This document shows positions 23,892-55,162 of a stretch of DNA of 64,000 nt, piece by piece. Location: NCBI RefSeq assembly GCF_029229925.1, contig NZ_CP107254.1:2046001-2110000 (forward strand). The letters are read 5' to 3'. The stretch comes from Halorhabdus sp. BNX81. GTDB taxonomy: Archaea > Halobacteriota > Halobacteria > Halobacteriales > Haloarculaceae. A program made the position numbers and the translations under genes. The notes beneath the pieces are model-generated. The model did no database searches. It was given only the letters and a program-made list of their open reading frames with translations, and was not told the DNA's origin. Within the stretch, counting starts at the first letter, position 1; each line of letters starts with the position of its first letter.

Positions 23892-23970
23892 ACCGACCGC
23901 GAGGAGTGCCGAGAAGTAAGCCCTGGCGGTCGATCAGCGGTGGTGTTTAGGTGAACGAGTCGTGGTTGGG

Positions 23971-24214
23971 AACAGCCGGAAAGCCCCGAGCGGCTCCGGT
24001 CGAAGCCCTCGCTGCGCTCCTCACTCCGTTGCGGTGCTAGCGTCGGCCGTCTTCCCGGAGCCGCTCGCCCCTTTCAGTCCACCCATGCCGGCTGACCAAC
24101 CGGTCTCGGGTGGGACTGAAAGGGGCCGCGCTCTCAGCAAGCCCCGACGACGCAAGCACCCACTGGAGCGCAGCGAGTCGCGGCAGCTGAGAGCGCGGGG
24201 GCTTTCTGGCTGTT
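23971..24214 (+). ncRNA. candidate structured element: flush four-way junction with loop-loop pairing
   Basis: Four helices meet with no unpaired base between them. P1 is 23971-23986 with 24199-24214 (16 bp, one G-U at 23978/24207). P2 is 23987-23999 with 24055-24067 (13 bp). P3 is 24068-24080 with 24113-24125 (13 bp, extended by ACCC/GGGT over a bulge). P4 is 24126-24138 with 24186-24198 (13 bp). In addition 24009-24020 in the P2 loop is perfectly complementary to 24165-24176 in the P4 loop (12 bp). The G-U pair forms only in RNA from the plus strand. It may be an RNA gene, or the folded end of a non-autonomous mobile element; I recall similar intergenic sequences in other haloarchaea. Confidence 0.6.
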
Positions 24215-24277
24215 GCAAGCGATCCCTGCTAAAGTCAACACGCCCCAATCAGCGGTTCGGAGTTGTCGACCGTGTGG

Positions 24278-53459: not shown

Positions 53460-55031
53460 CTAGTCGTCAGCGACGAGGGGCTCGGTCTCCGTCTCGACTA
53501 ACCGGTCGATGGCCTCGACCATGGCCTCGACGGAGGCCCGGGTGATGTCAGCGTCGCTTCTGGCGACCGTGACCGAGCGGTCGCCGCGGGACATCTCGAC
53601 CTCGACGGTGACGACGGCGTCGGTCTGGCCGGTGATGGCGTCGACGTGGTAGGAGTCGAGACTCCAGTCGACGTCGTGACCGAGAGCGGCCTCGACGGCG
53701 TTCATCGCGGCGTCGACGGGGCCGTCGCCGACCGAGGCTTCGGTGCGTTCGACGCCGTCGACCAGTAGGCGGATGCTCGCGGTCGGGGTGCCGCTGCCGG
53801 CGACCGTGTTCAGGTCGACGAGTTCGATCCGGCGCTCGCGCTCGCGGTCCTGGACGTCCTCGGCGATGGCGAGCAGGTCGGCGTCGGTGACGCGCTTGTC
53901 GCGCTCGCCGAGGTCCTTGACGCGCTCGAAGACGGCGTCGAGTTCGTCGTCGGTGACGTCGACGTCGTGCTCGGCGAGCGCCGCGGCCACGCCGGCCCGG
54001 CCGGCGTGTTTGCCCAGCGCGAGCCGGCGTTCCCGGCCCACTTTTTCGGGTGGGTACGGTTCGTACATCGACTCGTCCTTGAGGGTGCCGTCGGTGTGGA
54101 TGCCGCTCTCGTGGGTGAAGGCGTTCTCGCCGACGACGGCCTTGTTCGGGGCCAGCGGGATGCCGGTCTTGTTGGCGATGAGCTGGGCGAGGTCGTGGAC
54201 CTGCGTGAGGTCCATCGTCTCGACGCCGTAGCCGTGATCTAAGGCGATGGCGACCTCCTCTAAGGCGACGTTGCCGGCCCGCTCGCCGATGCCGTTGATC
54301 GTCCCGTGGACGAGGTCGGCACCCGCCGCCAGCGAGACCAGGGCGTTGGTGACCGCAAGCCCGAGGTCGTCGTGAGTGTGGGTGCTCGTCGGCCCGAGGT
54401 CGGCCAGCCGCGAGACGGCGTCCAACGTCCGGTCGGGCGTCGCGTGGCCGACGGTGTCGGCGTAACAGACCCGATCCGCGCCGGCCTCGAGGGCCTCGCC
54501 CATGAGTGCCTCGAGGAAATCGAGATCGGCCCGGGAGCCGTCCTCGCCGATCACCTCGACCCAGAGGTCGTGGTCAGTCGCGTACTCCACAAGAACTGCG
54601 GTGTCGGCGATGACGTCCTCGCGGGTCGTCCCGATCTTGTCCTCGATGTGGCGGTCGCTCGCCGGGACGACCAGGTGGACGCCGTCCACGCCCGTCTCCA
54701 GGGCGAGGTCGACGTCACTCTCGACGTTCCGGGCGAAGCTCGTGACCGTCGCGTCGAGATCGAGATCCGTCACGCGGCGGATGGTCTCGCGTTCACCCGG
54801 CCCGGTAACGGCGCTGCCGGCCTCGATCACGTCGATGCCGGCGGCGTCGAGTTCGCGGGCGATATGTGCTTTCTCCGCGGGCGACAGCGATACCCCGGGT
54901 GCCTGTTCACCGTCTCGAAGCGTCGTATCGAGCAGCCCGACGTCCGAGAGCGATTCGAGTGGCTCGGTCGCCGGGTGCTCGCCGAACAATCCTGGCAAAA
55001 TTCGGTCCTCGCTACGCGGGGAGAATTTCAC
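53460..55031 (-). CDS. cimA: (R)-citramalate synthase (or 2-isopropylmalate synthase)
   Basis: 523 residues. HMGL-like TIM barrel: 'VGLLDTTLRDGEQAPGVSLS' (metal and catalytic Arg/Asp), 'DGVHLVVPASDRHIEDKI' and 'STHTHDDLGLAVTNALVSLA'. 'HGTINGIGERAGNVALEEVA' and 'GENAFTHESGIHTDG' follow. The C-terminal regulatory LeuA dimer domain begins about residue 385. The order and wording closely match archaeal CimA (as in Methanocaldococcus), which joins pyruvate and acetyl-CoA for isoleucine. Start GTG 55031 is not certain; a short leader upstream contains a hairpin (GCCGCAAGGCGAC region). Confidence 0.85.
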   Translation of the reverse strand: MKFSPRSEDRILPGLFGEHPATEPLESLSDVGLLDTTLRDGEQAPGVSLSPAEKAHIARELDAAGIDVIEAGSAVTGPGERETIRRVTDLDLDATVTSFARNVESDVDLALETGVDGVHLVVPASDRHIEDKIGTTREDVIADTAVLVEYATDHDLWVEVIGEDGSRADLDFLEALMGEALEAGADRVCYADTVGHATPDRTLDAVSRLADLGPTSTHTHDDLGLAVTNALVSLAAGADLVHGTINGIGERAGNVALEEVAIALDHGYGVETMDLTQVHDLAQLIANKTGIPLAPNKAVVGENAFTHESGIHTDGTLKDESMYEPYPPEKVGRERRLALGKHAGRAGVAAALAEHDVDVTDDELDAVFERVKDLGERDKRVTDADLLAIAEDVQDRERERRIELVDLNTVAGSGTPTASIRLLVDGVERTEASVGDGPVDAAMNAVEAALGHDVDWSLDSYHVDAITGQTDAVVTVEVEMSRGDRSVTVARSDADITRASVEAMVEAIDRLVETETEPLVADD

Positions 55032-55162
55032 GCCCAGTCGCCTTGCGGCGACTTCCTCTATCCTCGCTCGTCGGGTGTTCCGACATTGTAACCTGAGAAA
55101 TGTGCTCGACGTTCATGAAGATATTGATCCCGGAACGACACAGACTCCCACAGGTAGCCACG

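What the first reader, a model, noticed from the sequence alone, without database searches (positions are those of the whole stretch)
23971..24214. Flush four-way junction with kissing loops
Four helices of 13-16 bp close on one another with no unpaired nucleotides at the junction, and the loops of two arms contain a perfect 12-bp match. One base pair in P1 is G-U only in plus-strand RNA, which argues for an RNA rather than a purely DNA cruciform. The element lies in a 386-bp gap between an SDR gene and endonuclease V. I recall similar sequences, with the motif GGGACTGAAAGGGGC, in intergenic regions of many haloarchaea, but I know of no assigned function. It may be an RNA gene or the structured core of a non-autonomous mobile element.
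Basis: partly seen in the sequence, partly recalled or inferred. Interest (0 to 1): 0.78.

Follow-up and report, generated by a model that had tools for sequence, protein, structure and literature searches.

The report
Mobile hairpin-module repeat of haloarchaea
The folded sequence is not a single-copy RNA gene but one old copy of a short transposon-like repeat, spread through salt-loving archaea, whose hairpin pieces keep near-perfect base pairing while being swapped and flipped between copies; what the hairpins do is still unknown.

Summary
The four-way fold is real: flush junction, z = -10.6 on the plus strand and -11.7 on the minus strand. It is one of about 15 copies in this genome and occurs class-wide in Halobacteria (69 of 145 genomes), not in other classes of the phylum that were sampled. 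The window copy is the core of a 307-bp IS6-type MITE (23939-24245). Its ends match IS6/IS240 elements of congeners, it has an 8-bp target duplication (CGATCAGC/CAATCAGC; perfect in a sister species), and a congener has the empty site. The core is an inverted pair of a ~100-bp hairpin module that also occurs singly and in copies without recognisable IS6 ends. Module stems covary very strongly (score 0.81 against 0.20 in shuffles). Pairing is almost strictly Watson-Crick (G-U about 1%, against 14% in SRP RNA of the same genomes), which favours maintenance as DNA. At orthologous loci the core was inverted in place, a module was replaced by one found at another locus, and small palindromes appeared in loops. 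The kissing contact shows no coevolution, and the G-U pair cited for RNA is a derived mutation. Flanks carry an unexplained, replicated 3-nt periodicity. The exchange enzyme and the function of the core are unknown.

The parts
23931..23938 (.). left target-site duplication CGATCAGC
   Evidence: same 8 bp on both sides in sister species G006; single CGATCAGCGGT in the empty site of G001
24246..24253 (.). right target-site duplication CAATCAGC (one mutation)
23939..24245 (.). whole IS6-type MITE (307 bp)
   Evidence: decayed ends GGTGGTGTTTAG / AACACGCCC; sister copies have GGCGGTGTTTAGTTTAGC as in IS6/IS240 elements of congeners
23939..23970 (.). left outer arm / decayed terminal inverted repeat
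24215..24245 (.). right outer arm / decayed terminal inverted repeat
23971..23987 (.). P1 5' arm (AACAGCCGGAAAGCCCC)
   Evidence: P1 positions covary among 93 copies
24198..24214 (.). P1 3' arm (GGGGCTTTCTGGCTGTT)
23979..24077 (+). left hairpin module (GAAAGCCCC-P2-loop-P2'-GCCCCTTTCAG)
   Evidence: module alignment A1; exact-pattern match
23988..23999 (.). P2 5' arm
   Evidence: covariation
24055..24066 (.). P2 3' arm
   Evidence: covariation
24067..24126 (.). P3 hairpin (GCCCCTTTCAGTCCACCC...GGGTGGGACTGAAAGGGGC), near-invariant centre
   Evidence: near-invariant columns; exact P3 pattern in 120 stretches of haloarchaeal genomes
24116..24206 (-). right hairpin module, inverted copy
24127..24138 (.). 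P4 5' arm
24186..24197 (.). P4 3' arm
   Evidence: test
24165..24177 (.). loop-4 partner stretch

Best explanation
The element is a non-autonomous transposable element (MITE) of IS6/IS240 type. Its core is an inverted pair of a class-wide ~100-bp hairpin module. Shown by sequence comparison: it inserted with an 8-bp target duplication using IS6-type terminal repeats; the core is built of modules that also occur singly and in copies without recognisable IS6 ends; the module stems stay almost perfectly Watson-Crick paired while their sequences change completely; and modules are replaced, flipped and extended by small palindromes in place. Inferred: an IS6 transposase supplied in trans moved it (this genome now has none). 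The palindromes extrude as cruciforms or fold as single-stranded DNA hairpins during replication, which makes them sites of template switching and recombination between copies; this keeps the arms complementary and shuffles modules, as in bacterial mosaic palindromic repeats. The nearly invariant GAAAGCCCC / GCCCCTTTCAGTCCC borders and internal-loop sequences imply a sequence-specific binding protein, not identified here.
For: Copies: about 15 places in the own genome, 41 of 59 relatives, 69 of 145 class genomes, none in the 85 genomes from other classes of the phylum. Mobility: target duplications GAAAGAAT, CACCGGAT, TCCTCGAT and CGATCAGC; orthologous filled site in G006, empty site in G001, element also absent from the locus in G002-G005; IS6/IS240 (PF13610) elements of ~690 bp in congeners with the same ends and 8-bp duplications. 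Structure: P2 96.5% paired, 292 double changes, covariation score 0.81 against 0.20 shuffled and at most 0.08 when slid. DNA-like pairing: G-T 8 and A-C 13 of 897 cells, 18 and 73 of 2970, 6 and 11 of 902 in an independent set, against 14% G-U in haloarchaeal SRP RNA. Dynamics: core inverted in place between L035 and L279 (module identities 95% and, against L269, 98% only when flipped) and left module replaced in L269; that module also sits at the L037/L271 locus; palindrome inserts in loops with no other change in the core (L033/L265).
Against: Many copies have no recognisable IS6 ends, so IS6 transposition cannot explain the whole family. No exchange enzyme is identified: the own genome has neither IS6 nor Y1 transposase. 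A strand asymmetry of mismatches (A-C over G-T) hints at selection on one strand in the first data set, although it did not replicate clearly. Near-invariant border and loop sequences are more than a passive palindrome needs.
Confidence: 0.72

Rival explanations
1. Structured RNA gene or RNA element: the four-way junction works as one ~240-nt RNA held by kissing loops.
For: Very stable fold; strong covariation; conserved internal-loop sequences across the class.
Against: Same fold on both strands; G-U about 1% against 14% in SRP RNA; no kissing coevolution; single modules and empty arms exist; core flipped in place; target duplications; no Rfam family reaches its threshold.
Confidence: 0.08
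2. Each hairpin module is the unit of function as an RNA read outward from P3 on the strand opposite to the module orientation; the dimer encodes two such RNAs divergently.
For: A-C mismatches exceed G-T 73 to 18 in module orientation, that is, G-U is better tolerated on the opposite strand; monomers exist.
Against: Independent genomes give 11 to 6, and 6 to 6 without the last pair; total G-U stays near 1-2.5%; no promoter or transcript evidence was available.
Confidence: 0.1
3. The module is a REP/REPIN-like single-strand DNA hairpin moved by a HUH (Y1) transposase in trans.
For: Hairpin with conserved internal loops and conserved borders, occurring singly and as inverted pairs, like REPs and REPINs; module replacement at one locus.
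Against: No Y1 transposase in the own genome G000 nor in module-rich G075, and Y1 genes are common in module-poor genomes; no REP-type tetranucleotide tag was sought or seen.
Confidence: 0.1
4. The structure is neutral: palindromes are perfected by template switching and gene conversion and have no function beyond being carried by MITEs.
For: Strict Watson-Crick pairing with few mismatches of either kind; flips, exchanges and palindrome inserts are what replication of palindromes can produce.
Against: Border and loop sequences are nearly invariant over the whole class; between G000 and G006 the window core differs by about 3% while the outer arms differ by roughly a quarter (counted by eye on the alignment).
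Confidence: 0.2

Closest known systems
MITEs of haloarchaea mobilised by transposases in trans (Dyall-Smith et al. 2011, PMC3119063)
   Same: Short, non-coding, terminal inverted repeats shared only at the ends with an IS, target duplication of the matching length
   Different: Core is a modular double hairpin shared class-wide and found with and without IS6 ends
SMR-A small mobile repeats of Haloquadratum (PMC3119063)
   Same: About 110 bp, prominent inverted ends, many copies, seen inside palindromes of other elements
BIMEs / REPINs with RAYT transposases (PMC2817692)
   Same: Mosaic of short palindromic modules, single or in inverted pairs, many intergenic copies (works like)
   Different: Modules ~100 nt with several internal loops; no Y1/RAYT link found; REP tags not tested
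PATEs (palindrome-associated transposable elements, IS605-related)
   Same: Palindromes, no coding capacity
   Different: Window copy has terminal inverted repeats and a target duplication

Membership tests
IS6/IS240-type MITE | terminal inverted repeats matching an IS6 element | tested here: met
   Sister copies have GGCGGTGTTTAGTTTAGC / GGCGGTGTTTAGTTAAGC ends as in PF13610 elements L247, L252, L263; the window's own ends are decayed
IS6/IS240-type MITE | 8-bp target duplication and empty site | tested here: met
   (perfect in G006, one mismatch in the window; single copy in G001); for others
IS6/IS240-type MITE | no transposase gene of its own | tested here: met
   307 bp, too short; PF13610 absent from the own genome
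Structured RNA gene | G-U pairs used in covarying helices on the transcribed strand | tested here: not met
   G-U 0.7-2.5% on either strand against 14% in the SRP RNA control
Structured RNA gene | member of a described RNA family | tested here: not met
   no Rfam match at gathering threshold; only mir-4436 far below threshold, E 0.24
Structured RNA gene | a transcript | not testable with these tools
   no expression data
Kissing-loop tertiary contact | loop partners coevolve within an element | tested here: not met
   within-element complementarity 10.15 against 10.67 for re-paired loops
REP/REPIN (RAYT-dependent) | cognate Y1 transposase in the host | tested here: not met
   none in the own genome G000 or module-rich G075; past presence not excluded
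SMR-A | sequence match to HqIRS42/43/55 | not tested
   element sequences are in supplements that could not be read

The most novel reading that the evidence does not exclude
Haloarchaea carry a class-wide system of exchangeable DNA hairpin modules, with invariant borders, variable but perfectly paired stems and conserved internal loops, shuffled between loci by a dedicated and still unknown recombinase acting on folded single-stranded DNA. It would be an archaeal counterpart of integron cassettes or REPINs that hitch-hikes in IS6 and other MITEs. The 3-nt periodic arms beside the modules would be part of its recognition site.
Probability: 0.2. Interest if true: 0.85.

Novelty: new variant of a known kind. 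Interest (0 to 1): 0.58.

Why it matters
It turns a 'possible RNA gene' into an example of a DNA-level structured repeat whose compensatory changes mimic an RNA. That is a warning for covariance-based RNA discovery, with a simple discriminator: G-U frequency on both strands against a known RNA from the same genomes. It also exposes a widespread, apparently undescribed haloarchaeal repeat with module exchange, in-place inversion and class-wide border sequences, which makes the question of which protein recognises it directly testable.

Tried and rejected
Single RNA with kissing loops: rejected by both-strand folding, low G-U and the re-pairing test. Coding explanation of the 3-nt flank periodicity: codon position 3 is not GC-rich, stop codons are not clearly depleted and module lengths break any frame. 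HUH/Y1 link: not supported. P3-only inversion at L040/L270: weak (71% flipped against 64% direct), not claimed. Second outer-end type with CTAG: the fixed phase is real, but some CTAGs are stop codons of neighbouring genes; a separate CTAG transposon family is not established. Empty site for copies without IS6 ends: L036 and L040 loci gave no clean boundary. Phages: no match; plasmids: partial, mostly unannotated matches in 28 records. Literature: no paper on this repeat with the border sequence (only chance matches in unrelated papers).

Full report
Observation. The 244-nt stretch 23971-24214 folds as described: P1 17 bp, P2 12, P3 18 with one bulge, P4 12, closing flush (z -10.6). The minus strand gives the same architecture with z -11.7, so stability gives no strand. 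No Rfam family matches at threshold.

It is a repeat. A search of the own genome finds about 15 places with related DNA, and 41 of 59 related genomes have matches. A named-genome scan for the P3 palindrome returned 120 stretches; the 80 listed records are haloarchaeal (Haloarcula, Halonotius, Haloterrigena, Natronococcus, Halobacterium and others). An exact module pattern occurs in 69 of 145 class genomes, with no hit of the reversed control pattern, and in none of the 85 genomes from other classes of the phylum.

It is transposed. The best-preserved sister copies (L031-L033) have outer repeats GGCGGTGTTTAGTTTAGC... and 8-bp duplications GAAAGAAT, CACCGGAT and TCCTCGAT (read). At the window locus, G006 has the same insertion with a perfect duplication CGATCAGC; the window has CGATCAGC/CAATCAGC; G001 has the single uninterrupted site, and G002-G005 lack the element. 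The element is therefore 23939-24245, and the insertion predates the G000/G006 split. IS6/IS240-family elements (PF13610, about 690 bp) in congeners carry these ends and 8-bp duplications. The own genome has no PF13610 gene now. A second IS6-type end (GTGTTCAGATAAG) bounds ~209-bp elements with a single module. IS6-type ends lie at a fixed 35 nt from the core in several genera, but most dimer copies have no recognisable IS6 ends.

Anatomy. The four-way core is two inverted copies of one hairpin module: GAAAGCCCC - stem - internal loops with CTCGCTGCG...GTGCTTGCGTCG - variable tip - stem - GCCCCTTTCAGTCCC (alignment A1). Modules occur alone and in inverted pairs, and arms can be missing (L089, L093, L077, L087). 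The loop complementarity read as kissing follows from the two loops being inverted copies; re-pairing loops between elements gives equal or higher complementarity. The P1 G-U is a derived change; sister copies keep A-T.

Structure is kept, and apparently as DNA. P2 across 75 modules is 96.5% paired with up to four pair types per position and 292 double changes; covariation score 0.81 against 0.197 in shuffles and at most 0.08 with slid partners. P1 also covaries at its variable positions. G-T and A-C mismatches are both rare: 8 and 13 of 897, 18 and 73 of 2970, 6 and 11 of 902 in an independent set of 82 modules. Haloarchaeal SRP RNA, treated with the same procedure, shows 14% G-U in variable pairs (its MAFFT alignment is imperfect, so this is a rough yardstick). 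Strict pairing almost without G-U points to DNA. The A-C excess in the first set, equal to G-U tolerance on the opposite strand, is a hint of a functional strand that did not clearly replicate.

Dynamics. At one orthologous locus in three congeners, gene-side flanks are nearly identical, yet the core of L279 is inverted relative to L035, and L269 has its left module replaced by one that also resides at the L037/L271 locus. L033 and L265 are identical through the core except for palindrome-bearing inserts in the loops. L040/L270/L280 is a mosaic in which outer arms, P3 and P2 tip group the three genomes differently. Between the window and G006 the core differs by about 3% while the outer arms differ by about a quarter (counted by eye).

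Interpretation. Shown: mobile IS6-type MITE; modular inverted-dimer core; class-wide conservation with compensatory change; in-place inversion, module replacement and palindrome gain or loss. Inferred: IS6 transposase in trans; cruciform or hairpin formation and template switching as the motor of exchange; a sequence-specific binder of the borders. Unknown: the enzyme, the advantage, and how copies without IS6 ends spread.

Compared with the known. It works like mosaic palindromic repeats (BIME/REPIN) and sits in haloarchaeal MITEs of the kind described in PMC3119063. It meets the IS6-type MITE criteria. It does not meet the RNA-gene criteria that could be tested, and no Y1 enzyme is present in the own genome. 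The relation to SMR-A elements could not be tested. No paper on this repeat turned up in the searched library, which covers only open-licence full text.

Noticed in passing
flanks of 93 dimers in L076-L195 and of 82 independent modules in L323-L382, 11-47 nt outside GAAAG: Phase-locked 3-nt periodicity: on the strand reading toward the element every third base avoids C (8-15% against ~28%) and favours G; it is not host-like coding and fades by ~50 nt. CTAG sits in one phase in 52 of 59 cases. Replicated in independent genomes and in single-module copies; unexplained.
   Followed up: partly
L034, L032, L033, L229, L266, L280 (module loops): Small perfect palindromes, often two per ~55-bp insert (for example TCCGCTC-hairpin-TCGCGCGTG-hairpin-CGC), inserted at fixed points of the module loops, with variable hairpin stems.
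   Followed up: partly
G150, G010, G120, G137, G141, G030, G106, G161, G073: A second kind of hairpin between the same GAAAGCCCC/GCCCCTTTCAG borders, with conserved GACATATCC...GGATAGNGGTC and apparently covarying helices.
   Followed up: no
L099 1500-1683: 45-bp tandem repeat of AACAGCCAGAAAGCCCCG plus spacer directly beside the core; related solo repeats beside L131, L132, L134 and L104.
   Followed up: no
L039 (own genome 118680-119460): One dimer element with ends TAGTGA...GAAGTACTA nested inside another IS6-type copy; L043 has the same ends.
   Followed up: no
window 55020-55072: leuA-Halobacteria RNA (RF03001) on the minus strand above threshold.
   Followed up: no
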